Source of the DNA: Arthrobacter ramosus
GTDB taxonomy: Bacteria; Actinomycetota; Actinomycetes; Actinomycetales; Micrococcaceae
Direction of reading: 5' to 3'
Assembly: GCF_039535095.1 (NCBI RefSeq)
Contig: NZ_BAAAWN010000001.1
Span: 5,146,001 to 5,210,000 of the forward strand
DNA: 64,000 bases
In this document: in pieces, positions 1,637-20,798 of the stretch
How the letters are laid out: each line of letters begins with the position of its first letter
How positions within the stretch are numbered: position 1 is the first letter of the stretch
Translations under genes and position numbers: made by a program
The notes under the pieces: model-generated
Told to the model about the DNA's origin: nothing
Database searches by the model: none
What the model saw: only the letters and a program-made list of their open reading frames with translations

Positions 1637-1711
1637 ACGCTCGCTCACCTATGTGGCCAAAATCCCGAACGCTCGCTCAGATATGAGCCCAATCGACGGA
1701 ACGCTCGCTCA
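1637..1711 (+). repeat. 32-bp-period repeat block, three units
   Basis: The 11-mer ACGCTCGCTCA occurs at 1637, 1669 and 1701, spaced exactly 32 bp. The intervening 21 bp vary, though the first two share the pattern (C/G)NTATGNG and an A-rich middle. The block fills the gap between the convergent acyl-CoA dehydrogenase and methyltransferase genes; the third unit ends 6 bp before the methyltransferase stop codon. The same motif and period recur at 8562, 10022 and 20669. Confidence 0.8.
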
Positions 1712-1716
1712 GGGCA

Positions 1717-2524
1717 CTACTCCACCACGGCGATCGCGAAGCCACCCCACGCACGTTTCTTCTTGGTCTCGCGACCAAGCCCACGCTGTTCGAGAAGCGC
1801 CAACCCGGAGGATAGGAGAAGGCCCGATAGGCGCTCCCGCGCGGGCGGTGTCCTGTCCACGCCGAACTTCAACGGTTGGCCGGCCGCTTTGGCCGCCGCC
1901 CTTCCGAACCGCCAGTACAGCGTGCCCGACTCGAGAGTCTCGGTTGTGAAGTAGTCGAAGGCGAGCAAACTGCCCTTCGCGCAACTCGCGACCTTGCGCA
2001 GCGTGTCCTCGATCGCTTCCCGGTCGAGGTACATCGTGACGCCTTCCCAGAGGAAAAGCGCCGGACGCCCGAGGTCGAACCCGGCGTCCACGAGTTTGGC
2101 GAGCCAATCATCCTTCTCGAAGTCCGCGGGCACGAACGCGACCTTGTGTACGTCGATTCCTGCCTTGTCCAGTATTTCGCGCTTGACCGCCTGGGTCTTT
2201 GGGGCATCTACCTCGAAGGAGTTGACGGGGGTCTCCCGCGGGAGGCGGTACGGGCGTGTGTCGAAGCCGGCGCCGAGGATGACCAACTGATCGATCCCTG
2301 GAAGGGCGCGCTCTACGGCGTTGTCGAAGAACGTGACCCTGGCCGACGCCTCGGCTTGTGGAGGTATCTCGCCGTCAAAGGGGTACCGGAAGGTCTTCGG
2401 GACGAAGCCCGTGACGCGGTGCGCGAAGATCGTCGGCCAGAATGCCAGCCGCTTGCCCAGCCAAGGAACGCCGGGCAGCAATGTTCAGGGCATAGAAAGC
2501 GACGGCGGCATCCGGCTTGCGCAT
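1717..2524 (-). pseudogene. Class I SAM-dependent methyltransferase (LCM/PPM1 type), 5' frameshift
   Basis: The main frame (1717-2481) encodes a methyltransferase with the SAM loop VILGAGFDTRPYRL and the ELFLWEGVTMYL-like motif (LFLWEGVTMYLDREAI here) of the leucine carboxyl methyltransferase-like family. It begins only at a TTG right after a stop. Upstream, an ATG at 2524 gives MRKPDAAVAFYALNIAA in another frame. Deleting one C from the CCC near 2475 would join NIAA to GVPWLGKRLAFW and give a normal N-terminus. The ATG lies 11 bp after the ptsH stop, so the gene was probably co-transcribed with ptsI-ptsH. The shift may be real or an assembly error. The substrate is unknown. Confidence 0.7.
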
Positions 2525-2534
2525 TTCCGGCCGC

Positions 2535-2813
2535 CTACTCCGCGTCGAGGTCCGTTTCCAGCAGTGTCACGAGGGAATCCAGGGCAGCGTCGGCGCCGTC
2601 GCCTTCCGCACGAAGCACCACGACGTCGCCCTTCGCCGCACCAAGCGTCATGAGCGAAAGGATGCTCGCGGCGTCGAGCGCGTCGTCGGCAGGCGAACCG
2701 GCCATCGCGATGGTCACTTCAACCGGGGATTCCCCCGCGGCTTCAGCAAAAATCGCAGCCGGGCGGGCGTGCAGTCCGGAGCGGCTGGCGATGGTGGCGG
2801 TGCGTTCGGGCAT
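2535..2813 (-). CDS. ptsH: Phosphocarrier protein HPr
   Basis: This 92-aa protein passes phosphate from enzyme I to the sugar-specific EIIA domains. The active-site motif GLHARPAA places the phosphorylated histidine at residue 15, exactly as in known HPr proteins. A Ser at residue 50, in ASILSLMTLGAAKGD, aligns with the regulatory Ser46 region of Gram-positive HPr; whether it is phosphorylated is unknown. It lies 39 bp downstream of ptsI and just before the methyltransferase gene on the same strand. Confidence 0.95.
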   Translation of the reverse strand: MPERTATIASRSGLHARPAAIFAEAAGESPVEVTIAMAGSPADDALDAASILSLMTLGAAKGDVVVLRAEGDGADAALDSLVTLLETDLDAE

Positions 2814-2852
2814 GGTTTCTCCTTGTGTTCAGGTAGGACGGTACGGCTGGGC

Positions 2853-4541
2853 TCAGAGCCCGAGTTCCTCGAGGATCGGCAGTTTGGCGCGGACCCAGGC
2901 CTTTGCGTCAAGCGCATCGGGTGCGCTTAGCGCCAGCCGTGCCAGCTCTTGCGCCTGTTCCAACGTCACCGTCTTGAGCACGGTTCCGACGGCGGCCAAA
3001 GACCGGGCGGTCATGGACAGTGTCGATACGCCCAGACCAACGAGCACGACGGCGAGGGCCGGGTCCGCGGCAGCCTCGCCGCAGACGCCAACGGGTTTGC
3101 CGTTGCCCTCTTCGGCGGAGCCCGCGACGGTCAGCTGCACGAGGCGGAGAACCGCGGGCTGCCAGGGGGTGTTGAGTTCGGCGAGGGGTCCGAGTTGCCG
3201 GTCGGCGGCCATGGCGTACTGCGTGAGGTCGTTGGTGCCGAGCGACGCGAAGCCCACGTGGCGCAGGACCGACGCCGAGGTCAATGCCGCCGAGGGAACT
3301 TCCACCATCACGCCGGGTGTCTTGATTCCCGCGGCGCCACACAGCGAGGCGAAACGGGCAGCCTCGGCCGCAGTCGAGATCATGGGTGCCATGACCCACA
3401 CTTCAGCTTCTGATTCGCCGGCCGCGATGGCGATGGCCTCGAGCTGGCGCTCCAAAACGCCAGGCGTCGTGAAGTCGGTACGGTAGCCGCGCACACCGAG
3501 GGCCGGGTTGGGCTCGGTGGCGTCGGTGAGGAAGGGAAGGGGCTTGTCCGCGCCGGCGTCGAGGGTCCGGAGCACCACTTTCTTTCCCGGGAAGGCATCG
3601 AACACGCCTCTGTACGCGGCGGCTTGTTCCAGAACGGTCGGTTCGGTGTCGCGTTCCAGGAAGCAGAATTCGGTGCGGAAAAGGCCCACGCCCTGTGCGC
3701 CCAGCGCGGCGGCTGCGGCAGCGTCCTTGGCCCCGCCGACGTTGGCGAGGAGGGGCACCAAGTGGCCGTCCGCCGTCGTGCCGTTTCCGTCAAAAACTGC
3801 CAGGGTGGCGGCATTTTCGACCCACGCGACGGCGGCCGCGCGCTGCTCTTCGGTGGGTTCGAGGGAGAGTGAACCGGCTGCGCCGTCAACAAAGGCTTCG
3901 GCGCCGTCAGGAATTTCGTCCACTCCGCGGGCCGCGACGACTGCGGGCAGCCCGAGTGAGCGCGCGATGATCGCCGTGTGGGACTGCGGTCCGCCACCCG
4001 AGGTGACCAGTGCTGTCACGATCGCTGGGTCCAGCGTTGCGGTATCGGCCGGGGCGAGGTCTTCGGCCACCAGGATGAACGGAGTGTCCGACGCCGGGAT
4101 CCCCGGGGCGGGGACCCCGCGAAGTTCGGCGACGATCCGCGCGCGGACGTCCAAGACATCGGTGGCACGCTCGGCCATGTATCCGCCCAGGTTGTGGAGC
4201 ATTTCGGACACGGAGGCGCCGGCTTCCCAGATGGCGCGTTCGGCGGAGCTGCCGTTGTTGTTGATGAGCTTCGTGGCCGACTTCAAGAGCATGGTGTCCT
4301 TAGCCATGAGCGCGGTGGCTTCCAGCACGGCCTTACCGTCTCCGCTGGCCTTGTCCGCGCGTGCTTTCAGTTCGTCGTGGACCGATTGGGCCGCAGCCTT
4401 CAGCCCGGCGACGGCTTCTTCCGCTGTGGTGGAAACGGCTAGCTGCTCGCCCGAAGGCGGTTCGCTGACTGGTTTGGGCATCTGACGGATAGTGCCAATG
4501 ACACGGCCGGGGCTGACGCCTACTCCTTGGAAATTCTGCAC
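2853..4541 (-). CDS. ptsI: Phosphoenolpyruvate-protein phosphotransferase, enzyme I
   Basis: Enzyme I takes phosphate from PEP and gives it to HPr, starting sugar uptake by the PTS. The phospho-histidine motif GGGPQSHTAIIARS puts the active His at residue 188. The PEP-binding barrel follows, with LGVRGYRTDF and a late GVCGEAA motif. The GTG at 4541 is preferred over an ATG 36 bp upstream because AGAGGA precedes it and the protein then begins with the usual QNFQGVGVSPG. It is about 560 aa, normal for the family. It is divergent from the tetR-mtlA-mtlD operon, so both arms probably respond to mannitol. Confidence 0.93.
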   Translation of the reverse strand: MQNFQGVGVSPGRVIGTIRQMPKPVSEPPSGEQLAVSTTAEEAVAGLKAAAQSVHDELKARADKASGDGKAVLEATALMAKDTMLLKSATKLINNNGSSAERAIWEAGASVSEMLHNLGGYMAERATDVLDVRARIVAELRGVPAPGIPASDTPFILVAEDLAPADTATLDPAIVTALVTSGGGPQSHTAIIARSLGLPAVVAARGVDEIPDGAEAFVDGAAGSLSLEPTEEQRAAAVAWVENAATLAVFDGNGTTADGHLVPLLANVGGAKDAAAAAALGAQGVGLFRTEFCFLERDTEPTVLEQAAAYRGVFDAFPGKKVVLRTLDAGADKPLPFLTDATEPNPALGVRGYRTDFTTPGVLERQLEAIAIAAGESEAEVWVMAPMISTAAEAARFASLCGAAGIKTPGVMVEVPSAALTSASVLRHVGFASLGTNDLTQYAMAADRQLGPLAELNTPWQPAVLRLVQLTVAGSAEEGNGKPVGVCGEAAADPALAVVLVGLGVSTLSMTARSLAAVGTVLKTVTLEQAQELARLALSAPDALDAKAWVRAKLPILEELGL

Positions 4542-4625
4542 TGAAATCCTCTGTTCCTGCTCTCGGATCGGACCCACCGGCTGCGGCGCCTCGGGGTCCG
4601 AAAAAATCTCCTGTGACTCACTTCA

Positions 4626-4640
4626 TATAGCGTTGCTATA
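4626..4640. promoter_or_regulatory. 15-bp palindromic operator between ptsI and tetR
   Basis: TATAGC-GTT-GCTATA is a perfect inverted repeat, 19 bp before the tetR start and about 85 bp from the ptsI start. Its AT-rich arms stand out against GC-rich surroundings and may include a -10 element. It is the natural candidate site for the adjacent TetR protein (inference). Confidence 0.6.
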
Positions 4641-4658
4641 GGTGCTAGGGTAGCGGCT

Positions 4659-5381
4659 ATGAGTTTCGATGACCAGCTTCCGCCCAAAACTCGGCTGCTC
4701 CGTGCAGCTGCCGAGTTGCTGGCGAATTCGGACGGGTCACCGGTCTCTACGCGCCAAATCACCAAACTTGCCGGCGTCACGGCGCCCACGCTTTACCACC
4801 ACTTCGGCGACAAGGAGGGGCTGTTCGACGCCGTCGTTGCAGCCGGCTTCGAGGAGTACGTGGCGGGAGAGCGGGACTTCGCACCCTCTGGGGAACCCCT
4901 GGAGGATGTCCGCCGGATGTGGGACAACCACGTCCAGTTCGGACTTACCCAACCGCACCTTTACCTGGTGATGTTCGGCAACATCCGTCCGGAAAGCAGG
5001 CCGGCCATCGTGGCTGATGCCGAGTCGCTTCTGGAGGAGATGCTGAGCAAGGCAGCCATTGCCGGGCAGATCAACGTACCCCCGCGCGAGGCAGCCAGGA
5101 GCATCCTGGCGGCCAACGTTGGCGTCACGCTCATGCTCATTGCAGAGCCTTTGGAAGACCGGAACCTCGAGCTCTCCACCATGACCCGGGATTCCATGAT
5201 TTTCGCCGTGTCCACGGAAACAGCCCGTGGCGCCGCAGCAGACGACTCCGGCAAGTCGTCCGTTGTTGTTGCGGCAATCGCGCTGAATGCGGCACTCCAA
5301 GCCTCACATTCAGACCAGCTATCCAGTTCGGAACTGAAGCTTTTCCTTGAATGGCTTCACCGAATCTCCAGCAGCTCCTAG
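4659..5381 (+). CDS. TetR-family regulator of the mannitol PTS region
   Basis: This 240-aa protein has an N-terminal TetR helix-turn-helix: STRQITKLAGVTAPTLYHHFGDKEGLFDAV, residues ~30-60 (read as two adjoining parts, recognition helix APTLYHHFG). The C-terminal ligand domain is not diagnostic. It sits between the divergent ptsI and the co-directional mtlA, 69 bp upstream of the latter. It probably represses both arms through the palindrome at 4626-4640 and perhaps those at 5394 and 5412. The ligand is unknown; mannitol-1-phosphate or a related metabolite is an inference from position. Confidence 0.85.
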   Translation: MSFDDQLPPKTRLLRAAAELLANSDGSPVSTRQITKLAGVTAPTLYHHFGDKEGLFDAVVAAGFEEYVAGERDFAPSGEPLEDVRRMWDNHVQFGLTQPHLYLVMFGNIRPESRPAIVADAESLLEEMLSKAAIAGQINVPPREAARSILAANVGVTLMLIAEPLEDRNLELSTMTRDSMIFAVSTETARGAAADDSGKSSVVVAAIALNAALQASHSDQLSSSELKLFLEWLHRISSSS

Positions 5382-5393
5382 AGCTGTCCTCCT

Positions 5394-5429
5394 TCGATAG
5401 ATATCGACTGATCCCGCACTGATGCGGGA
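5394..5429. promoter_or_regulatory. Two adjacent inverted repeats upstream of mtlA
   Basis: TCGATA-GA-TATCGA (5394-5407) and TCCCGCA-CTGA-TGCGGGA (5412-5429) lie in the 69-bp gap between tetR and mtlA. The second could form a hairpin in mRNA; the first looks like a protein site. The mtlA ribosome site TTAGGAA follows. Confidence 0.5.
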
Positions 5430-5450
5430 CTCGCGTTAGGAATTCACACA

Positions 5451-7406
5451 ATGGCAACAGCGTCAGTTGCGAAACAGCGCACCAGCGTGCGCGTTGGTGT
5501 CCAAAAGTTCGGAACGTTCCTTTCGGGCATGATCATGCCCAATATCGGGGCCTTCATTGCATGGGGCATCATCACCGCCCTGTTCATCCCGGCCGGGTTC
5601 TTGCCCAACGCGGACCTGGCCAAACTCGTGGGCCCCATGATCACGTACCTGTTGCCGCTCCTGATTGGCTACACCGGCGGCCGGGCGGTCCATGGCATCC
5701 GCGGCGGCGTGGTGGGAGCCGTCGCCACCATGGGTGTGATTGTGGGTACGGATATTCCGATGTTCATCGGTGCCATGCTCATGGGCCCACTCACGGCCTG
5801 GATCATGAAGAAGCTTGACAAGGTATGGGAAGGCCGGGTCAAGCCGGGCTTCGAGATGCTGATCGACAACTTCTCCGCAGGCATCGTCGGTGCCGCCCTG
5901 GCCATCTTCGGCATGTTGGTCATCGGCCCGGTGGTGAAGGCCTTCAGTGACGGCGCGAGCGCCGTCGTCGAATTCCTGGTCCACAACGGACTTCTCCCGC
6001 TGACCAGCATCTTCATCGAACCAGCCAAGGTCCTGTTCCTCAACAACGCAGTCAACCACGGCATCCTCACGCCGCTCGGTACGGAACAAGCGTTGCAAAA
6101 CGGCAAGTCCATCCTGTTCCTGCTGGAGGCCAACCCCGGCCCGGGCGTCGGCGTCCTGCTCGCGTACATGATCTTCGGCAAGGGCCTGGCACGGGCATCC
6201 GCTCCCGGCGCCGCGCTCATCCAGTTTGTCGGCGGCATCCACGAGATCTACTTCCCGTACATTCTCATGAAGCCGATCCTCATCCTCGCCACGATCGCAG
6301 GCGGCATGACCGGCATCTTCACCTTGGTGGTCACCGGAGCGGGCTTGCGTTCGCCGGCAGCCCCGGGCAGCATCATCGCGGTCTTTGCCGCGACGGCGAA
6401 GGACAGCTACTTTGGCGTGGGACTGTCTGTGCTCCTCGCAGCCACAGTGTCCTTCCTGATCGCCTCCGTGATCCTGCGGACCAGCAAGACCACCGATGTG
6501 GACGCGCTGGGCCAGGCAACGTCCAGGATGGAAGAGCTCAAGGGCAAGAAGAGTTCCGTTTCCTCCGCCCTCCTGGGCGCCGGTGGCGGTACCGCCGTCC
6601 TGACCCGTCCCATCGAGAACATCGTGTTTGCGTGCGACGCCGGCATGGGCTCCAGCGCCATGGGTGCCTCGGTGCTGCGCAACAAGATCAAGGCAGCCGG
6701 TTTCCCGGACGTCAAGGTCACGAACTCGGCCATTGCCAACCTCAGCGACACCTACGACGTCGTGGTCACGCACCAGGACCTGACAGAACGCGCCCGGCCG
6801 GTCACCTCCAGCGCCGTGCACGTCTCCGTGGACAACTTCATGAACAGTCCCCGGTACGAAGAGATTGTGGAACTGGTCAAGAGCAGCAACGCCGGAGCCG
6901 GCGCTGAGGGCTCGACGACGGTTGCCGAACCTGCCGCCGGTGCCCACGCCGCCCAGCCGGCCGCCGTCGGGGGCAAGGGTGTCCTGCTCCCCGAAAGCGT
7001 GATCCTCAACGGCACCGCGACGGACCGTGACTCGGCCATCGACGAAGCCGGCAAGCTCCTGCTGGACCGCGGCTCCGTGGACATGGGCTACATTCGCGCC
7101 ATGCATGAGCGCGAGGAATCCGTGTCCACGTACATGGGCAGCTTCCTGGCCATCCCGCACGGCACGAACGCTGCCAAGGACCACATCCTGCACTCCGGTG
7201 TGTCGATCGTCCGCTACCCCGAGGGCATCGACTGGGGAGGCAAGCAGGTCAAGTTCGTCGTCGGCGTCGCCGGCATCAACAACGAGCACCTCCACATCCT
7301 GTCCTCCATCGCCAAGATCTTCACGGACAAGGCGCAAGTGGCCCAGCTTGAGCAGGCCACGTCGGTGCAGGAAGTCCTGGATCTGTTCGGAAAGGTCAAC
7401 GCGTAG
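5451..7406 (+). CDS. mtlA: Mannitol-specific PTS enzyme IICBA
   Basis: A 651-aa membrane transporter that imports and phosphorylates mannitol to mannitol-1-phosphate. The IIC domain (about residues 15-350) has many membrane segments and the [13 protein letters not shown] start typical of MtlA. The IIB domain follows, with the phospho-cysteine in [13 protein letters not shown] at Cys395. The C-terminal IIA domain (about 515-651) has the phospho-histidine in [11 protein letters not shown] at His570. An Ala/Gly/Pro-rich linker joins IIB and IIA. It overlaps mtlD by one base and receives phosphate from the divergently encoded PtsI/HPr. Confidence 0.95.
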
Positions 7407-8554
7407 TGAAGGCAGTCCATTTCGGGGCAGGGAACATCGGACGAGGATTCGTCGGCTTGCTGCTGCACGAGGCTGGATATGAGGTGGTCTTCGCCGATGT
7501 TGCGGATGCCTTGATCAGCCAGCTCGCCTCCGCGACCTCCTACGAGGTCCACGAGGTCGGCGAAAACGCGGCGGTCAAGACCGTGTCCGGTTTCCGGGCC
7601 CTGAATTCGGGCACCGAAGAGGTTGCCGTCGTCGCGGAAATCGCGACGGCGGACCTCGTCACCACCGCGGTGGGGCCGCACATCCTCAAGTTCGTGGCGC
7701 CGGTGATCGCGCGGGGGATCGCCGGCCGCTCGCCGTCGTTGGCTCCGTTGCAAGTCATGGCCTGCGAGAACGCGATCAACGCCACGGACCTCCTGCATTC
7801 CGAAGTGGAAGCCGCTTGGGACGGTGCCGCCGGTGACCTTTCCTCCGCTGCTGTGTTTGCGAATACGGCGGTGGACAGGATTGTCCCCAACCAGGCGCCA
7901 GGCCAAGGCCTGGACGTCACTGTGGAGACCTTTTACGAGTGGGTCATCGACCGCACGCCGTTCGCGGGGAAGGCGCCGGTGATCCCCGGCGCAACCTTCG
8001 TGGACGAACTCGGTCCGTATATCGAACGGAAGCTGTTCACGGTCAACACGGGACACGCTTCGGCGGCGTACTTCGGCTACGGCGCCGGCCTCGAGAAGAT
8101 CTCCGATGCGATGGCCGATGCCTCCGTGGCCGCCCGGGTGCGGGCCGTGTTGGAGGAGACCAAGCAGCTTCTCGTGGCCAAACACGGCTTCGTCGAAGCT
8201 GAGCAGGAAGCGTACGTGCAGAAGATCCTGTCCCGCTTCACCAACCCGTACCTGCCGGACACTGTGAACCGGGTAGGCCGTGCTCCGCTCCGCAAGCTGG
8301 GCCGGCACGAACGGTTCATCGGACCGGCTGCGGAACTCGCCGAGCGCGGAGTCACTCCCGTTGCCTTGCTCGACGCGATGTCCGCTGCCCTGCGGTTCGA
8401 CGACGGAGCAGACGACGAAGCCGTGGAACTCGCCCGGATGCTTGCCGAGATGGACGCCGCCGAGGCGGTCGAGCGCATCACTGACCTGCCGTCGTCGCAC
8501 CCGTTGTTCCCCCAGGTGCTGAAGCTGATCGAAGACCGCAAGGCCGAGGCCTAA
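7406..8554 (+). CDS. mtlD: Mannitol-1-phosphate 5-dehydrogenase
   Basis: Oxidises mannitol-1-phosphate to fructose-6-phosphate with NAD+. It begins with the Rossmann motif [12 protein letters not shown] at residues 6-17 and is 382 aa, the usual size for MtlD. The GTG start shares one base with the mtlA stop (TAGTG), implying translational coupling. Later blocks VNTGHA and [14 protein letters not shown] fit the polyol dehydrogenase family. It is the last gene of the tetR-mtlA-mtlD unit and is followed by two 32-bp repeat units and a strong hairpin. Confidence 0.95.
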
Positions 8555-8561
8555 ACCCCGG

Positions 8562-8604
8562 ACGCTCGCTCAGATATACGGGTTTTTCGCCGAACGCTAG
8601 CTCA
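8562..8604 (+). repeat. 32-bp-period repeat block, two units, running into a terminator
   Basis: ACGCTCGCTCA at 8562-8572 and ACGCTAGCTCA at 8594-8604 are 32 bp apart. The first unit starts 7 bp after the mtlD stop. The second unit's last bases form the first bases of the terminator stem at 8601. A degenerate unit on the other strand (TAAGCGGGCGT, 8654-8664) lies just after the marR stop. Confidence 0.75.
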
Positions 8605-8635
8605 CCCTCCTTCACTTGATGTGAAGGAGGGTGAG
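8601..8635. terminator. Bidirectional hairpin terminator between mtlD and marR
   Basis: Fifteen perfect base pairs, CTCACCCTCCTTCAC (8601-8615) with its complement at 8621-8635, and a 5-nt loop TTGAT. It lies between convergent genes. The core CCTCCTTCAC recurs in the hairpin at 9966-10003. Confidence 0.8.
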
Positions 8636-8667
8636 CGCTTTGGTCTCTAAAAGTAAGCGGGCGTCAA

Positions 8668-9156: not shown

Positions 9157-9164
9157 ATGATATC
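9143..9164. promoter_or_regulatory. Possible MarR operator in divergent promoter
   Basis: GATAT (9143-9147) and ATATC (9160-9164) are inverted around CATATG, spanning the marR start codon. The arms are short, so this is a weak call based on symmetry and position. Confidence 0.3.
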
Positions 9165-9216
9165 GTTTCGGTATTGTATGGTTTTCCTAGGACAAGACTA
9201 CCGGAGGCCGCATCAC

Positions 9217-9948: not shown

Positions 9949-9965
9949 ACCGCAGTGGGAAACAC

Positions 9966-10003
9966 GAAACCCTCCTTCACGTGATGATGTGAAGGAGGGT
10001 TTC
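9966..10003. terminator. Hairpin terminator between convergent genes
   Basis: GAAACCCTCCTTCAC (9966-9980) pairs perfectly over 15 bp with 9989-10003; the loop is GTGATGAT. It serves the NmrA-like gene on one strand and the permease gene on the other. Its core is the same as in the hairpin at 8601-8635. Confidence 0.8.
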
Positions 10004-10021
10004 GGGTTTCGCCGCTATATG

Positions 10022-10064
10022 TGAGCGGGCGTCGGAAGAATTGCCGCTATATGTGAGCGGGCGT
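10022..10064 (-). repeat. 32-bp-period repeat block, two units (reverse strand)
   Basis: TGAGCGGGCGT at 10022 and 10054 is the complement of ACGCCCGCTCA; the period is again 32 bp. Each unit is preceded on the plus strand by GCCGCTATATG. Read along the minus strand the order is permease stop, unit, unit, hairpin, the same order as after mtlD. Confidence 0.8.
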
Positions 10065-10065
10065 C

Positions 10066-12200: not shown

Positions 12201-12246
12201 CTCTGGCAGCCTCGAGGGGTCCCAAGACAAAGTCCCGCATGCCTTG

Positions 12247-12728: not shown

Positions 12729-12753
12729 TAACCCAAAACTAGGAGAGCAGTCC

Positions 12754-13980
12754 ATGAAAGGCCAGCTCGCAGAGCAACTGCAGCCAGCGGAAGAAACACT
12801 CGAGGCCGAGAAGGCCTCGTTCCTCAAGCAGCCCAAAGCTGTGTGGGCCACGGCGATTGCCGCCGTCTTCGCCTTCATGGGTATCGGACTGGTGGACCCG
12901 ATCCTGCCGGCCATCGCCAAGAACCTCCAAGCCAGCCCCAGCCAAGTGTCGTTGCTCTTCACGAGCTACTTCCTGGTGACCGCGGTCGCAATGCTCGTGA
13001 CCGGGTTCGTCTCTTCGCGGATCGGTGGCAAAAAGACGCTCATGATCGGCCTGGCCCTGATTGTCGTGTTCGCCTCGCTGTCAGGCATGTCCGGAAGCGT
13101 GGGTGAGCTGGTCGGATTCCGCGCTGGTTGGGGACTTGGCAATGCCCTCTTCGTGGCCACCGCGCTTGCCGTGATTGTCGGCGTCGCGAGCGGCGGAACC
13201 GGCACAGCGATCATTCTCTACGAAGCCGCCCTTGGCCTGGGCATTTCCCTCGGCCCGTTGCTCGGAGCACTCCTTGGGGGCTGGCAATGGCGCGCACCGT
13301 TCTTTGGCACCGCGGTCCTCATGGCCATTTCCTTCATCGCCTTGCTGGCACTGCTGCCCAAGACCCCGACGCCGGCCACGAAGGCCCGTTTGCGTGACCC
13401 GCTCCTCGCCCTGGGCCACAAAGGCCTTCGCACTACCGCGGCCAGCGCCCTGTTCTACAACTACGGCTTCTTCACAATCCTGGCTTTCACGCCCTTCATT
13501 CTCGGGATGGACGCCTACGGTATCGGCTCCGTGTTCTTTGGTTGGGGCGTGGCCGTGGCCGTGTTCTCGGTCTTCGTGGCACCCGTGCTGCAGCGTCGCT
13601 TCGGTACCACCAACGTCCTGGTCGGCACCCTCGGGGCCCTTTTGCTGGACCTCGTCGGGCTGGGACTGGCCGCGGGGCACTCGGTGACTGCCGTCGTCGT
13701 GCTCGTCATTGTGGCGGGCGCCCTGCTGGGCATCAACAACACGCTCTACACCGAACTGGCCATGGAAGTCTCCGATTCGCCGCGTACCGTGGCTTCGGCC
13801 GGTTACAACTTTGTGCGGTGGATGGGTGGCGCGCTGGCTCCGTTTGTCGCGGCACAACTCGGTGAGCACTTCGGCCCGCAGGTCCCGTTCTTCGCCGCGG
13901 CCCTTGCCCTCGCGTTCGCGATCCTCGTAGCCGTCGGCGGCCGCCGCTACCTGAAGTCACACGAACCGCACCTCGTGTAG
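12754..13980 (+). CDS. MFS drug-efflux transporter
   Basis: A 408-aa major facilitator protein with about 12 membrane segments. After a 28-residue hydrophilic N-terminus come VFAFMGIGLVDPILPAIA (helix 1) and VTGFVSSRIGGKKTLMIG, the loop 2-3 motif of drug exporters. AGGAG precedes the ATG. It is co-transcribed with the MarR regulator immediately upstream, which suggests inducible resistance to an unknown compound. A long inverted repeat follows the stop codon. Confidence 0.87.
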   Translation: MKGQLAEQLQPAEETLEAEKASFLKQPKAVWATAIAAVFAFMGIGLVDPILPAIAKNLQASPSQVSLLFTSYFLVTAVAMLVTGFVSSRIGGKKTLMIGLALIVVFASLSGMSGSVGELVGFRAGWGLGNALFVATALAVIVGVASGGTGTAIILYEAALGLGISLGPLLGALLGGWQWRAPFFGTAVLMAISFIALLALLPKTPTPATKARLRDPLLALGHKGLRTTAASALFYNYGFFTILAFTPFILGMDAYGIGSVFFGWGVAVAVFSVFVAPVLQRRFGTTNVLVGTLGALLLDLVGLGLAAGHSVTAVVVLVIVAGALLGINNTLYTELAMEVSDSPRTVASAGYNFVRWMGGALAPFVAAQLGEHFGPQVPFFAAALALAFAILVAVGGRRYLKSHEPHLV

Positions 13981-13985
13981 GAGGG

Positions 13986-14051
13986 CCCAACTGACTCGCA
14001 GTTGTTGTCGTTATGAGGGCTCAAAACGACAACAACTGCGAGTTACTTGGG
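13986..14051. repeat. Long inverted repeat, copy 1 (27-bp arms)
   Basis: The left arm 13986-14012 and right arm 14025-14051 pair over 27 bp with two mismatches, around a 12-nt loop. The core AACGACAACAACTGCGAGT is shared, with one base changed, with the element at 50439-50504. It lies between convergent reading frames and may also act as a terminator, although no U tract follows. Confidence 0.8.
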
Positions 14052-14057
14052 TGGGGA

Positions 14058-14559
14058 TTACTTGGGCGTGATCGCGAGCTCTGCGGGATTGGCGCCCTTC
14101 GGGACGAACAACGTGTCGGCCTGCTCAAGGGACATGCCGTTGGTTTCCGGCACCTTGAACATGACGAAGAAGAACGACGCCGCGGCGAACAGCGCGTACA
14201 TGCCGTAAGTCAGCGGCAGCGAACCGGCCGCCATGATGGGGAAGCTCAAGGTGATGGCGAAGTTGGCGCTCCACACCACGGCGGCCAGGCCGAGCGCGCG
14301 GGCGCGGAGCGAGCCCTTCTGGGTGCAGAGTTCGTCCTGCTTGATGGAGTCACGGATTTCGCGGATGTGGCGTTCGGTATCGTCGCCGGGCATCAGGGCG
14401 TCGAAGATCTTGCGTGCGGTGTCTTCCTTACCGTTGAGGACCAGGAAGTGCGGCGACTCAGGCAGCCGGAACGCGATCAGGCCGTATATCGCGGCGGGCA
14501 CGGCACAGGCAATGAACAATCCAACGCCAGGCCTCAATTCCGAGCCACAGGGCGGACGT
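14058..14559 (-). pseudogene. Remnant of a sugar-porter MFS transporter
   Basis: The minus strand encodes ACAVPAAIYGLIAFRLPESP, a long loop, then RALGLAAVVWSANFAITLSF and VPETNGMSLEQAD, all sugar-porter signatures. The region between the PESP loop and the RALG block is missing, which removes several membrane helices. Upstream, SALWLGIEAWRWI is readable in another frame just before ACAVPAAIYG, so a frameshift is also present. The N-terminal half is absent; the sequence there becomes non-coding and runs into the terminator of the next gene. This is a clear relic. Confidence 0.8.
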
Positions 14560-14623
14560 GTCACGCCACGCAAACTTTTGCGCCGCCGTCGGGCACTCCC
14601 CGGCGCGAACACTGGAAACGACA

Positions 14624-14654
14624 ACGGCAGGCAGTCCAAAAGACTGCCTGCCGT
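14624..14654. terminator. Terminator after the DHA2-type MFS gene
   Basis: ACGGCAGGCAGTC (14624-14636) pairs perfectly with 14642-14654 around the loop CAAAA. It lies 23 bp beyond the stop codon of the minus-strand MFS gene. Confidence 0.75.
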
Positions 14655-14676
14655 GACGCGGTCGAAGAGACGGAAA

Positions 14677-16329
14677 CTAGTGCGCGGAAACGGATTCCTT
14701 TGCTGCCGCCTTCGGATCCATCAGTTTCTTGTTCGGCAAAGCGAAGCTGATGAGGAACGCGAGGCCGGTCAGCGCCGCGGCGGTCAGCATCACGGTGTCG
14801 ATCGATTGCGCGAAGCCTTCAACGATGGGCCGTGTGAGCGCCGGGTTGGCGTGGTGCAGCCAGCTGGTGTCGTTCAGCGAATCGTTCGTGGCGCCGTTCT
14901 TGAAGAAGTCGTACAGCTTGGCGTTGGCGGGATCCGCGGCAACCGCAGGATCCTTGAGCACCTTGAGGTAGTCCGCGCTGCCCATGGCGTCCTTCATGCC
15001 CGAGGCGATCTTGTCGGCGGCCAGGCTGAAGAGCATCGAGATGAACACCGCGGTTCCCACCGCGCCACCCATGGAACGGAAGAACGCAGCGGTGGACGTG
15101 CCCACACCCATGTCTTTCGGCGGCACGGAGACCTGCATGGCCAGTGTGAGCGGCTGCATGCAGAAGCCCAGGCCCATGCCGAAGAATACGGCGATCAGAC
15201 CGGGAACCCAGAGGCCGGTGTCGACGCCGAGGGATAGGCCCATGACGATGGCGGCGGCGGTCAGGATGCCCGTACCGAGGATCGGGAAGATCCGGAAAAC
15301 GCCCGACGCCGAGATGGTCCGTCCCGCTGTAATGGAACCGAAGAGGATGCCCACTGTGAAGGTGATCATCATGAGGCCCGCTTCGGTAGGGGTGAGGCCC
15401 TTGACCAGCTGCAGGTACATCGGGAGCATCGCGATGGCCCCGAACATGCCGATACCGATGATGAAGTTCAGCAGGGAAGACAAGCCGAAGGTGATGTTCC
15501 TGAAGAGCCGCAAGGGGATCAGCGCGTAGTCGCCGGCACGCCGCTCAACCAGCAGGAACGCGATGATGCCGATGACGCCAAGCCCGTAGCAGATCCACGA
15601 GTTGCCGGAGGTCCAGCCCCAGCTGCGGCCTTGCTCGGCCACGAGCAGCAGCGGGACGATTGCCAGCGTAATGGCTCCCGCGCCCCAGTAGTCGATCTTC
15701 TGCTTGACGTGCTTCGCGGGCAGGTGCAGGTAGAAGAACACCACGGCCAGTGCAGCCAGGCCTATGGGCAGGTTGATGAAGAAGACCCAGCGCCAGCCGT
15801 CGAAGCCAAGGATGTTGGACGAGCCTGCGAAAGCACCGCCGACCACGGGCCCGAGGACCGAGGAAACGCCAAAGACGGACATGAAGTAGCCCTGGTACTT
15901 GGCACGATCCTTCAGGGCAACGATGTCGCCGATGATGGTCAGCGCGAGGGCCAGCAGACCGCCGGCGCCCATACCTTGTATGCCGCGGGCGATGGCGAGC
16001 TCGGTCATGGAGTGAACGGAACCGGCGTACAGTGAGCCGGCGAGGAAGATCAGGATCGCGGCCAGGTACAGCGGGCGGCGGCCGAAGATGTCACTGAGCT
16101 TGCCGTACAGCGGGGTGGTCACCGTGGAGGTGATGAGGTAGGCCGTAGTGGCCCACGCCTGCAGAGACAGGCCGTCCAGGTCGTTGGCGATGGTGTAAAT
16201 GGACGTGGACACGATGGTCTGGTCCAGGGAGGACAGGAACATGCCGAGCATGAGGCCCACCATGACGGTGAGCGTCTGACGGTGTGTCAGGACCTCTCCG
16301 GCGGCCCGCACAGGCGTGGCGTTGGACAT
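14677..16329 (-). CDS. DHA2-family (EmrB/QacA) MFS multidrug transporter
   Basis: A 550-aa membrane protein with about 14 predicted helices. GMFLSSLDQTIVSTSIYTIA and YGKLSDIFGRRPLY near residues 30 and 75 are diagnostic of DHA2 drug:proton antiporters, as is the motif-C region VSSVLGPVVGGAFAG. It starts behind GGAGAAGCA. A separate inverted repeat lies in its promoter, but no regulator gene is adjacent. The substrate is unknown. Confidence 0.88.
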   Translation of the reverse strand: MSNATPVRAAGEVLTHRQTLTVMVGLMLGMFLSSLDQTIVSTSIYTIANDLDGLSLQAWATTAYLITSTVTTPLYGKLSDIFGRRPLYLAAILIFLAGSLYAGSVHSMTELAIARGIQGMGAGGLLALALTIIGDIVALKDRAKYQGYFMSVFGVSSVLGPVVGGAFAGSSNILGFDGWRWVFFINLPIGLAALAVVFFYLHLPAKHVKQKIDYWGAGAITLAIVPLLLVAEQGRSWGWTSGNSWICYGLGVIGIIAFLLVERRAGDYALIPLRLFRNITFGLSSLLNFIIGIGMFGAIAMLPMYLQLVKGLTPTEAGLMMITFTVGILFGSITAGRTISASGVFRIFPILGTGILTAAAIVMGLSLGVDTGLWVPGLIAVFFGMGLGFCMQPLTLAMQVSVPPKDMGVGTSTAAFFRSMGGAVGTAVFISMLFSLAADKIASGMKDAMGSADYLKVLKDPAVAADPANAKLYDFFKNGATNDSLNDTSWLHHANPALTRPIVEGFAQSIDTVMLTAAALTGLAFLISFALPNKKLMDPKAAAKESVSAH

Positions 16330-16366
16330 TGCTTCTCCAAGGGTGGATGAAAAGGGGACTAAGCAG

Positions 16367-16391
16367 GGATAGTTGCTTTCAGTAACTATCC
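16367..16391. promoter_or_regulatory. Inverted repeat in DHA2 transporter promoter
   Basis: GGATAGTT (16367-16374) and AACTATCC (16384-16391) flank 9 bp, about 40 bp before the transporter start. The shape resembles MarR or TetR operators of efflux genes. The cognate regulator is not next door, so it may act in trans. Confidence 0.5.
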
Positions 16392-16437
16392 TAATCGCTC
16401 CTGTATTCCTTGTCTTACCCGATTGGCGGGAAAAATG

Positions 16438-16920
16438 TCACCGCTCCACGAGAATCCCGTCAGGATCGCAGTAGATCAGGGTGCCGGGTTCGATGTGCAC
16501 TCCGTCAATCACCAAAGGGATGTCCACTTCGCCACGGCCCACTTTGGAGCTCTTCTTGGGATTGCTCCCGAGTGCTTTGACGCCCAAAGGCAGCTTCGCG
16601 ATCGCCACGCGATCACGGATGGCCCCATTGATCACGACGCCGGCCCAGCCGTTCGCAACGGCGCTCTCCGCGATCATGTCCCCCATGAGGGCTGTGCGCA
16701 GCGAGCCGTAGCCGTCCACCACCAGCACGGCGCCTTCGCCAGGGGTCGCCAGAATTGTCTTCACCAGGGCATTGTCCTCAAAGCACTTGATGGTGCGAAC
16801 GGTGCCGCTGAAGTGCGAGACGCCGCCGAGGTCCTGGAACTGCAGTGATATCGACTCAACATCCTCGGCACGCTCGTCGTAGAGATCGGCGGTGTTGATG
16901 GGGTTCGCTGGGCTGTTCAT
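16438..16920 (-). CDS. RraA-family protein (RNase E inhibitor / aldolase fold)
   Basis: A 160-aa RraA-like protein. The signature region GDMIAESAVANGWAGVVING followed by AIRDRVAI matches the Gly...Arg-Asp site of class II pyruvate aldolases of the RraA/HMG aldolase fold. LPLGVKALGSNPKKS is also characteristic; the KALGSNP spelling is close to classical RraA rather than to the longer aldolases. GAGGAGG precedes the ATG. Role: either modulation of RNase E or aldol/oxaloacetate chemistry; sequence alone cannot decide. A longer paralogue is at 28891. Confidence 0.8.
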   Translation of the reverse strand: MNSPANPINTADLYDERAEDVESISLQFQDLGGVSHFSGTVRTIKCFEDNALVKTILATPGEGAVLVVDGYGSLRTALMGDMIAESAVANGWAGVVINGAIRDRVAIAKLPLGVKALGSNPKKSSKVGRGEVDIPLVIDGVHIEPGTLIYCDPDGILVER

Positions 16921-17082
16921 CGTTGATCCTCCTCGGTCCGTTGGAGTTACCCTAACGCGTGCGGACTTACCTTGGCGGTCCTGGACAGGGCAGTTGTCCA
17001 CATGCGCGCCTTCATGACAGCCGGACAGACTCCCACGGCGCTAGGCTGAATCCACACGTCCAGACGCTAGGGGAGCACCGCC

Positions 17083-18402
17083 ATGAGCCTGTCCGATCTG
17101 CCCGGTTCATTGCCTGAAAGACCGGCGACGGATCCTGCGGGGATGCAGGCAGGCCCGACGACGGCGCTCGCCGAGCCCGTGGAGCGCGTCCGCTCGCTGT
17201 GGGTCACCGGAGTGGTGCTCGTCAATGTGGGCATCAACGCTGCCTTCTTCGGCCCGATTCAGGTTTTGCTCGGGCAGCAAGCCATCCACTTTGACGAAGG
17301 CCAGAAGGAAGCCATCCTTGCGCTGGTTACGGGATGCGGTGCTGCGGTGTCCCTCGTGGCGAACCCGATCTTCGGTGCGTTCAGCGATCGCAACACGTCC
17401 CGCTTCGGACGGCGGGTACCTTGGGTGCTCTTCGGCGCCATCCTGGGCGCGGCAGCCCTTGTGGCCCTGGCGGGTGCTCCCAACGTGGCAGTCATGGCCA
17501 TTTTGTGGTGCCTGGTCCAGGCCGGTTGCAATGGAGCCTATGCCGCCATCACAGCGGCTATTCCGGATCGAGTGCCAGTGCCGCAGCGCGGCGCGGTCGG
17601 CGGCCTTGCGGCCATGGGTCAGACCGTGGGCATTCTCGCGGGCGCGGTGATCGCTTCCGTGGTTTCCGGGAACTTTGCCCTCGGCTACATTGTCTGTGCC
17701 GCCGCGCTGCTGGCCGGCGTCGTGCTCTATCTTTTCAAGAATGACGACGTGCCTCTCGTTCCGGAGGCCAGGCCGCCGTTCAAACTCTGGACATTCGTCA
17801 AGGGATTTTGGATCTCGCCCGTCAAATATCCCGACTTCGCGTGGGCCTGGCTGACGAGGTTCCTGGTCAATGTCGGCAACCACATGGTCACGCTGTACTT
17901 GCTGTTCTTCCTCAAGGATGCCGTGCACCTCGAGGAAGCGCAGGGGATCAAGCCAGAGCTCGGGGTCCTGATCCTCACAGGCTTCTATGCGGTCATGGTG
18001 ATCATCACCAGCGTGGTGGGCGGTGCCATCAGCGACCGTATGGGCAAACGCAAACCCCTCGTCATTGTCTCGTCCATCGTCATTTCGATAGCTGCCCTGA
18101 TCCTTGGGTTCGAACCCACGTGGACGGGGGCCATTGCCGGTGCGGCGGTGCTCGGTATCGGCTTTGGTGCGTACCTGGCGGTCGACTTCGCCCTTATCAC
18201 CCAGGTGCTGCCCTCTGCGCTGGACCGGGGCAGGGACCTTGGGGTCATCAACGTGGCCAACTCTTTGCCGCAGGTGATCGCCCCTCTTATCGCGTACCCC
18301 TTTGTGGCGTTCTGGGGTGGCTACGTCTCGCTGTATGTGGCCGCAGCTGTGATCGGTCTGCTGGGGGCGGTATTCGTGGTGAAGATCAAGGGCGTCGCGT
18401 AG
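17083..18402 (+). CDS. MFS transporter, SLC45/GPH-like
   Basis: A 439-aa transporter with about 12 helices. IFGAFSDRNTSRFGRRVPWV is the loop motif of sucrose- and glycoside-type MFS carriers, and a second half-motif GGAISDRMGKRKPLVI follows mid-protein. GGGGAG precedes the ATG. A TetR gene follows about 120 bp downstream on the same strand. It is probably a sugar or glycoside symporter; the substrate is not visible. Confidence 0.82.
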   Translation: MSLSDLPGSLPERPATDPAGMQAGPTTALAEPVERVRSLWVTGVVLVNVGINAAFFGPIQVLLGQQAIHFDEGQKEAILALVTGCGAAVSLVANPIFGAFSDRNTSRFGRRVPWVLFGAILGAAALVALAGAPNVAVMAILWCLVQAGCNGAYAAITAAIPDRVPVPQRGAVGGLAAMGQTVGILAGAVIASVVSGNFALGYIVCAAALLAGVVLYLFKNDDVPLVPEARPPFKLWTFVKGFWISPVKYPDFAWAWLTRFLVNVGNHMVTLYLLFFLKDAVHLEEAQGIKPELGVLILTGFYAVMVIITSVVGGAISDRMGKRKPLVIVSSIVISIAALILGFEPTWTGAIAGAAVLGIGFGAYLAVDFALITQVLPSALDRGRDLGVINVANSLPQVIAPLIAYPFVAFWGGYVSLYVAAAVIGLLGAVFVVKIKGVA

Positions 18403-18523
18403 CCCTGCGAATCCGTTCTCAGGGAACTGACAACTTGCTGCCGTATCATTGTCAGGACGCGCTCGGTCTTTGGGGGGCCGCGCAATCTCCCAGAACGAAG
18501 CCCAAACCAACAGAACGCCGGAA

Positions 18524-19233: not shown

Positions 19234-19365
19234 ACCCAAGCGGCTAGCAGCCCATATCCGCAGGAGTTTCACCGCACGGACCAGCCACCCTTGGTCCGGC
19301 ACCGAAGCCTCTATACCTGCCCGAATAGTGCCGTGGGTTCACGGCTAGCCTGAGGAGACAACGAC

Positions 19366-20559
19366 GTGTCCGTCGAGACCATCACCCCTGAACAGAATCT
19401 GACTGCCCTGGCGCTGAGCGAAGAGGAAATCTTCACCGCCCACGAAGGCGGCAAGCTCTCCGTTTCCAGCACGGTACCGCTTTTGAACAAGCGGGACCTT
19501 TCCATTGCCTACACTCCCGGTGTCGCCGAGGTGAGCCGCGCGATCCACGCCAACCCTGAGCTTGCACGCACGCATACCTGGGCCGAGCGTCTCGTGGTGG
19601 TCGTCAGTGATGGCACCGCGGTCCTGGGCCTGGGCGACATCGGACCCAGCGCCTCCCTCCCTGTCATGGAAGGAAAGTCCGCGCTGTTCAAGGCGTTCGG
19701 CGATCTCAATTCCATTCCCTTGGTCCTCAATACCACCAACGTGGACGAAATCATCGAGACCCTGGTCCGCCTGCGTCCGAGCTTCGGTGCCGTGAACCTC
19801 GAAGATATCTCCGCACCCCGCTGCTTCGAACTCGAAGAGCGTCTCATCGAAGCCCTCGACTGCCCCGTCATGCACGATGACCAGCACGGCACCGCCGTCG
19901 TGGTTCTCGCAGCGTTGACGAACGCCGCCAAGGTGACCGGCCGTGAACTTGAGGGACTGAAAATTGTGGTCTCCGGTGCGGGTGCCGCGGGCATCGCCGT
20001 CTCCGAGATCCTGCTGACCGCGGGCGTCGAGGACGTCGTCCTTCTGGATTCCAAGGGCATCATCAACGCCGAGCGCGCCGACCTTGTGGCCGATTCGGGC
20101 AGCGTCAAGGCCCGCTTCGCCCAGCGCACCAACCCCCGCGCCCTTTCCGGCGGACCCGCGGAGGCACTGCAGGGCGCCGATGTGTTCATCGGCGTTTCCT
20201 CGTCCAAGCTGGCCGAGGAACATTTGAAGCTCATGAACCAGGATTCGATCGTCTTCGCCCTGTCCAACCCGGACCCGGAAGTCCTGCCCGAGGTCGCCGT
20301 CAAGTACGCGGCCGTCGTGGCCACTGGCCGCAGCGACTTCCCTAACCAGATCAACAACGTCCTTGCGTTCCCCGGAATTTTCCGCGGAGCCTTGGACGCC
20401 GGCGCACGCCGCATCACCCCGGCCATGAAGATCGCCGCAGCCCGTGCCATCGCCGCACTGGCCGAGGACGAACTCTCCGTCGATTACATCGTGCCCAGCC
20501 CGCTGGATCCCCGCGTCGCTCCCGCGGTCACGGCGGCGGTTGCCGCGGCGGCTGAATAA
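19366..20559 (+). CDS. NAD(P)-dependent malic enzyme
   Basis: Decarboxylates malate to pyruvate. It is 397 aa, the short bacterial form without a phosphotransacetylase domain. Visible blocks are the early YTPGVAEVSRAI, VVSDGTAVLGLGDIG, the metal site CPVMHDDQHGTAVV and the Rossmann motif VVSGAGAAGIAVSEIL, with FALSNPDPEV and FPGIFRGALD near the end. The GTG start has GAGGAG 10 bp upstream. It stands alone with its own strong terminator. Confidence 0.95.
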   Translation: MSVETITPEQNLTALALSEEEIFTAHEGGKLSVSSTVPLLNKRDLSIAYTPGVAEVSRAIHANPELARTHTWAERLVVVVSDGTAVLGLGDIGPSASLPVMEGKSALFKAFGDLNSIPLVLNTTNVDEIIETLVRLRPSFGAVNLEDISAPRCFELEERLIEALDCPVMHDDQHGTAVVVLAALTNAAKVTGRELEGLKIVVSGAGAAGIAVSEILLTAGVEDVVLLDSKGIINAERADLVADSGSVKARFAQRTNPRALSGGPAEALQGADVFIGVSSSKLAEEHLKLMNQDSIVFALSNPDPEVLPEVAVKYAAVVATGRSDFPNQINNVLAFPGIFRGALDAGARRITPAMKIAAARAIAALAEDELSVDYIVPSPLDPRVAPAVTAAVAAAAE

Positions 20560-20585
20560 TCCCGCGCGCCCAACCCGAATAGCCG

Positions 20586-20631
20586 ACGACGGCGACGCTC
20601 CCGTGCTGGGGAGCGTCGCCGTCGTTTTTTG
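20586..20631 (+). terminator. Intrinsic terminator of malic enzyme gene
   Basis: A 17-bp perfect stem, ACGACGGCGACGCTCCC (20586-20602) with 20609-20625, loop GTGCTG, followed by a run of T. It is the clearest rho-independent terminator in the window. Confidence 0.92.
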
Positions 20632-20668
20632 TTCCGTCGTCGTTCTCAGGGACTAACTTCAGCGTTGG

Positions 20669-20798
20669 TGAGCGCGGGTTTGGGATTTGGGCCCGATATG
20701 TGAGCGGGGGTTTGGGATTTGGGCCCGATATGTGAGCGAGGGTTTGAGCAGGCAAACGCTCGCCGACCTTTATCGGCATTTTGGCCGACGCTCGCTCA
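20669..20798. repeat. 32-bp-period repeat block, three reverse and two forward units
   Basis: TGAGCG units at 20669, 20701 and 20733 (reverse orientation) are 32 bp apart; the first two full periods share the identical spacer GGTTTGGGATTTGGGCCCG. Forward units follow at 20756 (ACGCTCGCC, degenerate) and 20788 (ACGCTCGCTCA), also 32 bp apart. The block lies between the malic enzyme terminator and the histidine kinase gene, and it is the only one with both orientations. Confidence 0.85.

What the first reader, a model, noticed from the sequence alone, without database searches (positions are those of the whole stretch)
1637..20798. Intergenic repeat family with a strict 32-bp period
The 11-mer ACGCTCGCTCA (or ACGCCCGCTCA) occurs in blocks of two to five at 1637-1711, 8562-8604, 10022-10064 and 20669-20798, always spaced 32 bp, only between genes, and mostly just after stop codons. 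The spacer often starts (C/G)ATAT and has an A/C-rich middle; two spacers at 20669 are identical. A fixed period of about three helical turns suggests a protein lined up on one DNA face, or a repeat spread by a replication-based process. I know of no described element with this form.
Basis: seen in the sequence. Interest (0 to 1): 0.78.

Follow-up and report, generated by a model that had tools for sequence, protein, structure and literature searches.

The report
Arthrobacter 32-bp repeats at gene ends
Arthrobacter chromosomes carry dozens of small arrays of a 32-bp repeat, mostly just behind the ends of genes, whose fixed spacing and conserved core suggest DNA sites read by a still unknown protein rather than chance or a known mobile repeat.

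Summary
Genome-wide the exact 12-mer RACGCTCGCTCA occurs 134 times; of 66 nearest same-strand neighbours within 200 bp, 57 lie at 32 bp and 3 at 33. Two motifs 32 bp apart occur 126 times against 0 for the reversed control. The unit is a 13-bp core plus a loosely conserved spacer. Of 81 arrays in fetched own DNA, 47 are sense behind a gene, 25 antisense, 8 at an edge, 1 coding. All 5 distinct rRNA operon ends carry a sense array. In the sampled family it is clear only in the own genus (15 of 24 genomes) and one further genus, in species dialects but always 32 bp. Relatives keep arrays in the same intervals, with other unit numbers. Core and spacing look constrained. REP transposases, RNA pairing and terminator replacement found no support; plasmid and phage searches were negative but of low sensitivity. 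Best reading: protein-bound DNA lattices at transcript ends, BIME-like in role but not REP elements. The protein is unknown and the function unproven.

The parts
1636..1711 (+). Array of three units (cores at 1636, 1668, 1700), 54 bp behind the stop of the acyl-CoA dehydrogenase gene 316-1581 and just before the end of the convergent gene 1717-2481 (Pfam LCM)
   Evidence: same interval holds 2, 3 and 2 units in G043, G045 and G065
8561..8604 (+). Array of two units (cores at 8561 and 8593), 6 bp behind the stop of the mannitol dehydrogenase gene 7406-8554
   Evidence: two or three units in G012, G043, G054, G045
8600..8636 (+). Hairpin whose outer stem uses GCTCA of the second core; followed by inverted single unit at 8654-8665
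   Evidence: read from the sequence; present in the aligned relatives
8654..8665 (-). Single inverted core (one mismatch) close to the end of the MarR-type gene 8668-9054
9967..10002 (+). Hairpin between the convergent genes 9217-9948 and 10066-11445, before the array
   Evidence: read from the sequence; aligned in relatives
10022..10065 (-). Array of two units directly behind the stop of the amino-acid permease gene 10066-11445 (minus strand)
   Evidence: two or three units in G012, G043, G054, G045
20669..20744 (-). Array of three units (2, 1, 1 mismatches), two spacers identical; antisense to the neighbouring genes
   Evidence: same interval holds arrays in G012, G043, G045
20755..20798 (+). 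Two units (the first with two mismatches) 32 bp apart, back to back with the preceding array, between the malic enzyme gene 19366-20559 and the sensor kinase gene 21040-22287

Best explanation
The blocks belong to a chromosome-wide, mostly vertically inherited family of cis-acting DNA arrays at the ends of transcription units of Arthrobacter. The unit is 32 bp: a 13-bp asymmetric core (here RACGCYCGCTCAC) and a spacer in which many columns fix only strong or weak base pairs. Most likely the core is bound by a sequence-specific host protein, and the 32-bp step (three helical turns) lets copies sit head to tail on one face of the DNA. Sense arrays behind stop codons, and arrays facing each other across a hairpin, would form a barrier at transcript ends: a roadblock or insulator against read-through and colliding polymerases, or an anchor for supercoil control as proposed for E. 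coli BIMEs. SHOWN by computation: spacing, position, orientation, greater conservation of the core than of the spacer, unit gain and loss, dialects, limited range. INFERRED: the protein, its cooperativity, the barrier function.
For: Strict spacing in a list made without any spacing in the query: 57 of 66 at 32 bp, 3 at 33; 590 of 608 neighbour pairs at 32, though 119 of the loci had been fetched for one such pair. Core 17 mismatches of 360 orthologous positions outside the two degenerate ones, spacer 61 of 341, third codon positions 2247 of 16224. Sense and antisense units equally intact: 336 of 465 and 191 of 277 without mismatch, as expected for double-stranded DNA rather than RNA. Strong/weak spacer columns and no nested base-pair covariation. 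Gene-end position: 47 sense, 25 antisense of 81 arrays, 35 of the 47 within 30 bp of the stop; 12 sense, 6 antisense of 22 in other dialects; 5 of 5 distinct rRNA operons. Shared by G000 and G012 in 4 of 4 array-bearing orthologous intervals. Period 32 in 26 locus groups of other dialects, the query itself having asked for it.
Against: No binding protein or candidate was found. 104 of 150 genomes of the genus lack the own-species pattern and 9 of 24 lack the general three-unit pattern, so it is dispensable. Unit duplication plus homogenisation could give part of the spacing and core conservation. Counting all 12 core positions the mismatch rate is 43 of 432, not lower than in array-free intervals (70 of 618, 450 of 6393, 384 of 5177). 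A third of classified arrays are antisense. Preference for convergent intervals is clear in the window (3 of 7 against 1 of 23 tandem and 0 of 11 divergent) but weak in a 200-kb stretch (2 of 18, 3 of 52, 1 of 26).
Confidence: 0.42

Rival explanations
1. BIME-like sites for DNA gyrase or another general topology protein: bendable DNA kept in phase by the 32-bp step (about 3 x 10.7 bp), placed where positive supercoils collect, behind transcription units and between convergent genes.
For: 5 of 5 distinct rRNA operon ends and many convergent intervals. Passages of PMC6379681 describe a gyrase motif with phased G/C variation of 10.75 bp, gyrase cleavage downstream of rRNA operons and in BIME-2. 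Spacer shows A/T-rich stretches about 10 bp apart.
Against: The 10.7-bp harmonic of the G/C profile is not dominant: 0.12 of the power against 0.17 for the 8-bp harmonic, and 0.00-0.22 over 26 locus groups. A general protein does not explain a conserved 13-bp core or species dialects. Upstream genes are ordinary.
Confidence: 0.2
2. Selfish or neutral minisatellite: a 32-bp unit that expands by slippage, occasionally spreads as a ~95-bp doublet of facing pairs, and survives where it does no harm, behind genes.
For: Unit numbers change in 32-bp steps between relatives; 12 of 43 own neighbour spacers identical; doublets at different loci of one genome resemble each other over the doublet (80-89%); one array found only in G045 of five genomes compared.
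Against: Core more conserved than spacer between orthologues; 3% off-32 spacing; positions shared by species; no transposase identified. Doublet likeness partly follows from the shared consensus and was not tested against it.
Confidence: 0.2
3. RNA-level element of 3' untranslated regions, for instance a Rho-type loading site or a transcript stabiliser.
For: Sense orientation behind stops; units are C-rich and G-poor on the sense strand (0.38 C, 0.22 G in own units; C above G in 24 of 26 locus groups).
Against: Antisense units are as intact as sense ones; strict spacing is not needed in RNA; no pairing covariation; the 120 nt behind stops are not clearly more C-over-G with arrays than without (0.32/0.29 against 0.32/0.31 convergent; 0.36/0.27 against 0.32/0.29 tandem); hairpins are not replaced by arrays.
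Confidence: 0.12
4. DNA-uptake-type signal with species dialects (likeness to Haemophilus and Neisseria uptake sequences recalled, not searched).
For: Core followed by two A/T-rich stretches; species dialects; facing pairs forming hairpins.
Confidence: 0.03

Closest known systems
BIMEs and REP elements of enterobacteria and pseudomonads
   Same: Extragenic, up to some hundreds of copies, behind genes and between convergent genes, facing pairs forming hairpins, proposed protein-binding and supercoil roles (passages of PMC2817692, PMC1525189, PMC6379681).
   Different: The unit is not a palindrome but a directional 32-bp head-to-tail repeat; no GTAG-type head was noticed; Y1 transposase in 1 of 150 genomes, and that one has no own-species pattern match.
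TAACTGA direct repeats of Beggiatoaceae, Cyanobacteria and Bacteroidetes (PMC4679880; abstract and passages seen)
   Same: Sets of short intergenic direct repeats spread over a genome, no known binding protein.
   Different: 7-bp units, in the main species mostly upstream of start codons and proposed to act in translation; here 32-bp units mostly behind stop codons.
Repeated roadblock terminators of eukaryotic rDNA (Sal boxes with TTF-I; recalled, no call)
   Same: Directional repeated sites behind rRNA genes that could stop polymerase.
   Different: Here also behind ordinary genes, with fixed 32-bp step; no protein known.
Iteron and centromere-type arrays (recalled, no call)
   Same: Tandem protein sites in fixed helical register.
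   Different: Those sit at one or few loci; these form 51 clusters of exact motifs over the chromosome.

Membership tests
REP elements with RAYT transposases | Palindromic single unit (stem-loop) | tested here: not met
   Unit is directional; no nested Watson-Crick covariation in 439 distinct units, the largest excess being columns 16/19 (168 against 114 expected). Only facing pairs form hairpins.
REP elements with RAYT transposases | A REP-associated Y1 transposase in the genome or its relatives | tested here: not met
   PF01797 in 1 of 150 genus genomes (G032), none in G000; the family rings in 5 of 14 control genomes.
REP / BIME as a class of extragenic repeats | Extragenic, behind genes, many copies | tested here: met
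   1 of 81 arrays coding; 47 sense behind genes.
BIME-2 / gyrase sites | Dominant phased 10.7-bp G/C variation | tested here: not met
   Harmonic 3 holds 0.12 of the power, harmonic 4 0.17; 0.00-0.22 in 26 locus groups.
BIME-2 / gyrase sites | Gyrase binding or cleavage in vivo | not testable with these tools
   Needs cleavage mapping.
Intrinsic terminators | Arrays stand in for the hairpin | tested here: not met
   With arrays masked, 0.61 of 28 convergent array intervals keep a hairpin of -12 kcal/mol or better; length-matched pieces of 37 array-free intervals 0.55 (sd 0.05).
CRISPR arrays | Unrelated acquired spacers | tested here: not met
   Neighbouring spacers are alike far above random units.
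CRISPR arrays | cas genes nearby | not tested
   No cas search was made.
Transposon / MITE | Discrete ends with target duplication and empty sites | tested here: inconclusive
   Doublets resemble each other over about 95 bp and one array is present in G045 only of five genomes, but I saw no clear target duplication in that alignment.
Known structured RNA | Match to an Rfam family | tested here: not met
   0 matches at gathering score in the window.
Protein-bound lattice | A protein that binds the core | not testable with these tools
   Needs pull-down or ChIP.

The most novel reading that the evidence does not exclude
A fast-evolving, still unknown DNA-binding protein of Arthrobacter coats 32-bp lattices behind its transcription units, rRNA operons included, in species-specific dialects, and so marks where transcription ends: a bacterial counterpart of repeated roadblock terminators.
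Probability: 0.27. Interest if true: 0.85.

Novelty: new variant of a known kind. Interest (0 to 1): 0.62.

Why it matters
It is a common element in a much-studied soil genus for which I found no description in one open-access library. If a protein reads it, it would be a chromosome-wide way of closing transcription units without REP palindromes or RAYTs, and its natural dialects would let the specificity of the protein be traced. It also matters for annotation: in 8 of 47 sense arrays the first unit overlaps the predicted stop codon by 1-2 bases.

Tried and rejected
REP/RAYT origin: not supported. RNA structure inside the unit: no nested covariation. Rfam: nothing at gathering score in the window. 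Plasmid or phage carriage: no BLAST match for one array and 0 viral contigs with the two-motif pattern. A calibration showed that the BLAST query would have found only 47 of 119 known array loci at that threshold, so the plasmid and phage results are weak. Arrays as terminator substitutes: a first comparison suggested it (0.57 against 0.99); the length-matched control removed it. Replication-strand polarity: suspected from truncated lists, dropped when longer lists showed both strands; in the own genome 82 of 134 exact sites run with the fork (my sum, duplicates not removed). Origin-proximal clustering: strong in G000 (46 of 51 clusters), not in G281 (15 of 25), G020 (10 of 15) or G059 (7 of 14); the terminal 40% of the arm is depleted in G000 (2 of 51), G020 (1 of 15) and G059 (2 of 14), not in G281 (8 of 25) (genome lengths of G020 and G059 rounded). 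Not used as a general property. A mobile carrier: 2-kb repeats shared by three array loci turned out to be rRNA operons. Strongly expressed genes: Pfam names for 30 upstream proteins (4 without a match) show ordinary enzymes and regulators. Candidate binding protein: none found; no protein homology, structure prediction or fold search was run.

Caveats: gene calls come from my own codon-usage script, not from an annotation. Loci fetched by pattern are biased towards arrays; less biased counts come from the window, from motif-only lists and from one contiguous 200-kb stretch near the origin chosen for its synteny. In one search many groups have 1-4 units, and the genomes behind L312-L317 were not in the part of the list that I saw. 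In the comparison at 2481-2535 G000 lacks more than the array.
Full report
CHECK OF THE OBSERVATION. Inside every run the cores are 32 bp apart. The block at 20669-20798 is two runs of opposite orientation; the one at 8562 has a further inverted copy at 8654. ACGCYCGCTCA with up to one mismatch occurs 14 times in the window; 100 shuffles gave a mean of 4.55 and at most 9.

GENOME-WIDE. The window is 5146001-5210000 of a 5,251,250-bp contig. AACGCTCGCTCA occurs 60 times and GACGCTCGCTCA 74 times exactly; with one mismatch the first pattern has 225 places against 22 for its reversed control. Of 66 nearest same-strand neighbours within 200 bp, 57 are at 32 bp, 3 at 33 and 6 at 42, 63, 64 or 137; this list was made without any spacing in the query. 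RACGCYNGCTCA-20-RACGCYNGCTCA occurs 126 times against 0 for the control. The stretch from 5217949 is a 99.8-99.97% copy of the contig start over the parts compared, while 5248000-5251250 and 31000-34500 do not match, so a few sites are counted twice; without the duplicate the exact sites form 51 clusters.

THE UNIT. From 86 distinct own units the consensus is RACGCYCGCTCAC, then N-T-A-T-R-N, G/C-rich 20-23, A/T-rich 24-27 and G/C-rich 28-32. Many spacer columns fix only strong or weak pairs (column 29: C 0.47, G 0.47). There is no nested series of covarying columns; the largest Watson-Crick excess is at columns 16/19 (168 against 114 of 439). Neighbouring spacers are related: 12 of 43 own pairs are identical over columns 14-32, the most different pair differs at 12 of 19. 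Runs of two or more have up to 12 units in own and named loci together, up to 7 in own DNA.

ARRANGEMENT. Runs of opposite orientation often face each other with motif starts 19 bp apart: 9 of 27 facing pairs within 130 bp in own loci and 40 of 96 in named loci. This gives a 12-bp stem and a 7-nt loop such as GATGATC or CATCATG. In 50 distinct tight junctions the spacers on the two sides are less alike than shuffled (7.86 against 9.25 of 20; 0 of 5000 shuffles as low); in 29 looser junctions they are rather more alike (9.17 against 8.39). Either an asymmetric doublet of about 95 bp has spread, or long perfect palindromes are lost; I cannot tell which. Some doublets at different loci of one genome match over that length at 80-89%, which the shared consensus explains in part.

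POSITION. Of 81 own arrays of two or more units, 47 are sense behind the upstream gene, 25 antisense, 8 at the edge of the fetched DNA and 1 in a predicted gene. Of the 47, 35 begin within 30 bp of the stop and 8 overlap it by 1-2 bases. In named relatives, of 239 multi-unit runs 119 are sense, 66 antisense, 7 coding and 47 edge. In other dialects, of 22 arrays of three or more units 12 are sense, 6 antisense, 3 edge and 1 coding. In the window arrays lie in 3 of 7 convergent, 1 of 23 tandem and 0 of 11 divergent intervals of at least 40 bp; in a 200-kb stretch near the origin in 2 of 18, 3 of 52 and 1 of 26, so the preference for convergent intervals is weak there. The six listed 5S ends, five of them distinct, each have a sense array behind the 5S hairpin. 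Pfam names of 30 upstream proteins are ordinary.

CONSERVATION. Around the window, relatives G012, G043, G054, G045 and G065 hold arrays in the same intervals with differing unit numbers where the interval could be compared. One array is present in G045 and absent in the other four genomes compared; at 2481-2535 units are present in G043, G045 and G065 and absent, with flanking sequence, in G000. None of the divergent intervals compared there carries units. In the 200-kb comparison of G000 with G012, 4 of 101 orthologous intervals have arrays in both, 97 in neither, none in one alone. Between orthologues the core differs at 43 of 432 positions, 26 of them at the degenerate positions 1 and 6, leaving 17 of 360; the spacer differs at 61 of 341, other sequence of array intervals at 270 of 1611, third codon positions at 2247 of 16224. 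Array-free intervals differ at 70 of 618 (convergent), 450 of 6393 (divergent) and 384 of 5177 (tandem). So the core is more constrained than its own surroundings and than third codon positions, but only its non-degenerate positions are below array-free intervals. Spacing: 590 of 608 neighbour pairs are at 32 (119 of the loci had been selected for one such pair). With 5.4 differences per neighbouring unit and 0.077 indels per substitution in array-free intervals about 34% should be off 32, or 24% with indels of up to 4 bp only; 3% are. Duplication and homogenisation of units could cause part of this.

DISTRIBUTION. The own-species two-motif pattern is in 46 of 150 genomes of the genus, with 0 control matches in all 150. 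Named records are Arthrobacter, Paenarthrobacter and Pseudarthrobacter besides one Streptacidiphilus record not followed; the list stopped at its limit. Three CTCAC at 32 bp are in 31 of 295 family genomes: 15 of 24 of the own genus, 7 of 22 of genus g24 (two of them with similar control counts; sequences seen for G391, which fit the unit) and 9 scattered genomes whose listed matches do not resemble the unit. In 396 genomes of the order the same pattern is in 26: 7 of 10 of the own genus, one other family member and 18 outside the family, whose listed matches do not resemble the unit and are mostly local tandem repeats. Dialects: GACGCTCGCTCAC (own), GACGCTCTCTCAC (G020, G142, G374), GTCCCTCTCTCAC (G281), RACGCGTCCTCAC (G002, G391). 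CTCAC and the period were the query and are shared by construction; A2, C3, C5, T15, G19 and the T-run at 25-27 were not.

MECHANISM. The fixed step, a core equally intact on both strands, the strong/weak spacer and the lack of RNA signals point to DNA read by protein. The place at transcript ends points to a barrier, an insulator or a supercoil anchor. Gyrase, as at BIME-2 (PMC6379681, passages), is possible, but the 10.7-bp harmonic is not dominant. REP transposases are absent from the array-rich genomes listed and were found in 1 of 150. What defines REPs was taken from passages of PMC2817692 and PMC1525189. Arrays do not replace hairpins. The sense 120 nt behind stops are not clearly more C-over-G with arrays than without. 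No candidate protein was found.

LITERATURE. Searches showed me no description; of most listed papers I saw only the listing. RepRanger (PMC12306157, one passage) names an Arthrobacter only in a table of counts. The Renibacterium tandem-repeat paper (PMC4029610, passages) gave no unit sequence in what I saw. The nearest published case that I looked at is the TAACTGA repeats (PMC4679880, abstract and passages).

VERDICT. A real repeat family of Arthrobacter with a strict 32-bp architecture, mostly at gene ends; most likely a protein-bound DNA lattice with a BIME-like role, not a member of the REP family; function unproven.

Noticed in passing
G000 contig 1-18500 and from 5217949 (L224, L236, L318, L319): The end of the contig repeats its start at 99.8-99.97% over the parts compared, though 5248000-5251250 and 31000-34500 do not match; an unclosed circular assembly or a recent duplication.
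   Followed up: partly
L236:2496-2825 (+), behind the rRNA operon at G000 16315: An HU-type DNA-binding protein gene (Pfam PF00216) lies just downstream of an rRNA operon and its facing arrays.
   Followed up: partly
G000, G020, G059 chromosomes: Array clusters avoid the origin-distal part of the arm in three of four genomes examined (2 of 51, 1 of 15, 2 of 14 beyond 60% of the arm; 8 of 25 in G281). Unexplained; may follow core-gene distribution.
   Followed up: partly
Tight facing junctions, e.g. G000 534331-534457: Spacers on the two sides of tight hairpin junctions are less complementary than by chance (0 of 5000 shuffles).
   Followed up: partly
G665:C2:7993, C26:218555, C34:38922 (another family of the order): Three places with a different 32-bp direct repeat related to each other; might be a separate repeat family.
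   Followed up: no
L233 (G079:C1:2590000-2594500): Array region containing a run of N, with duplicated array blocks on both sides.
   Followed up: no
window 8668-9054: A MarR-type regulator gene converges on the mannitol dehydrogenase gene across the array.
   Followed up: no
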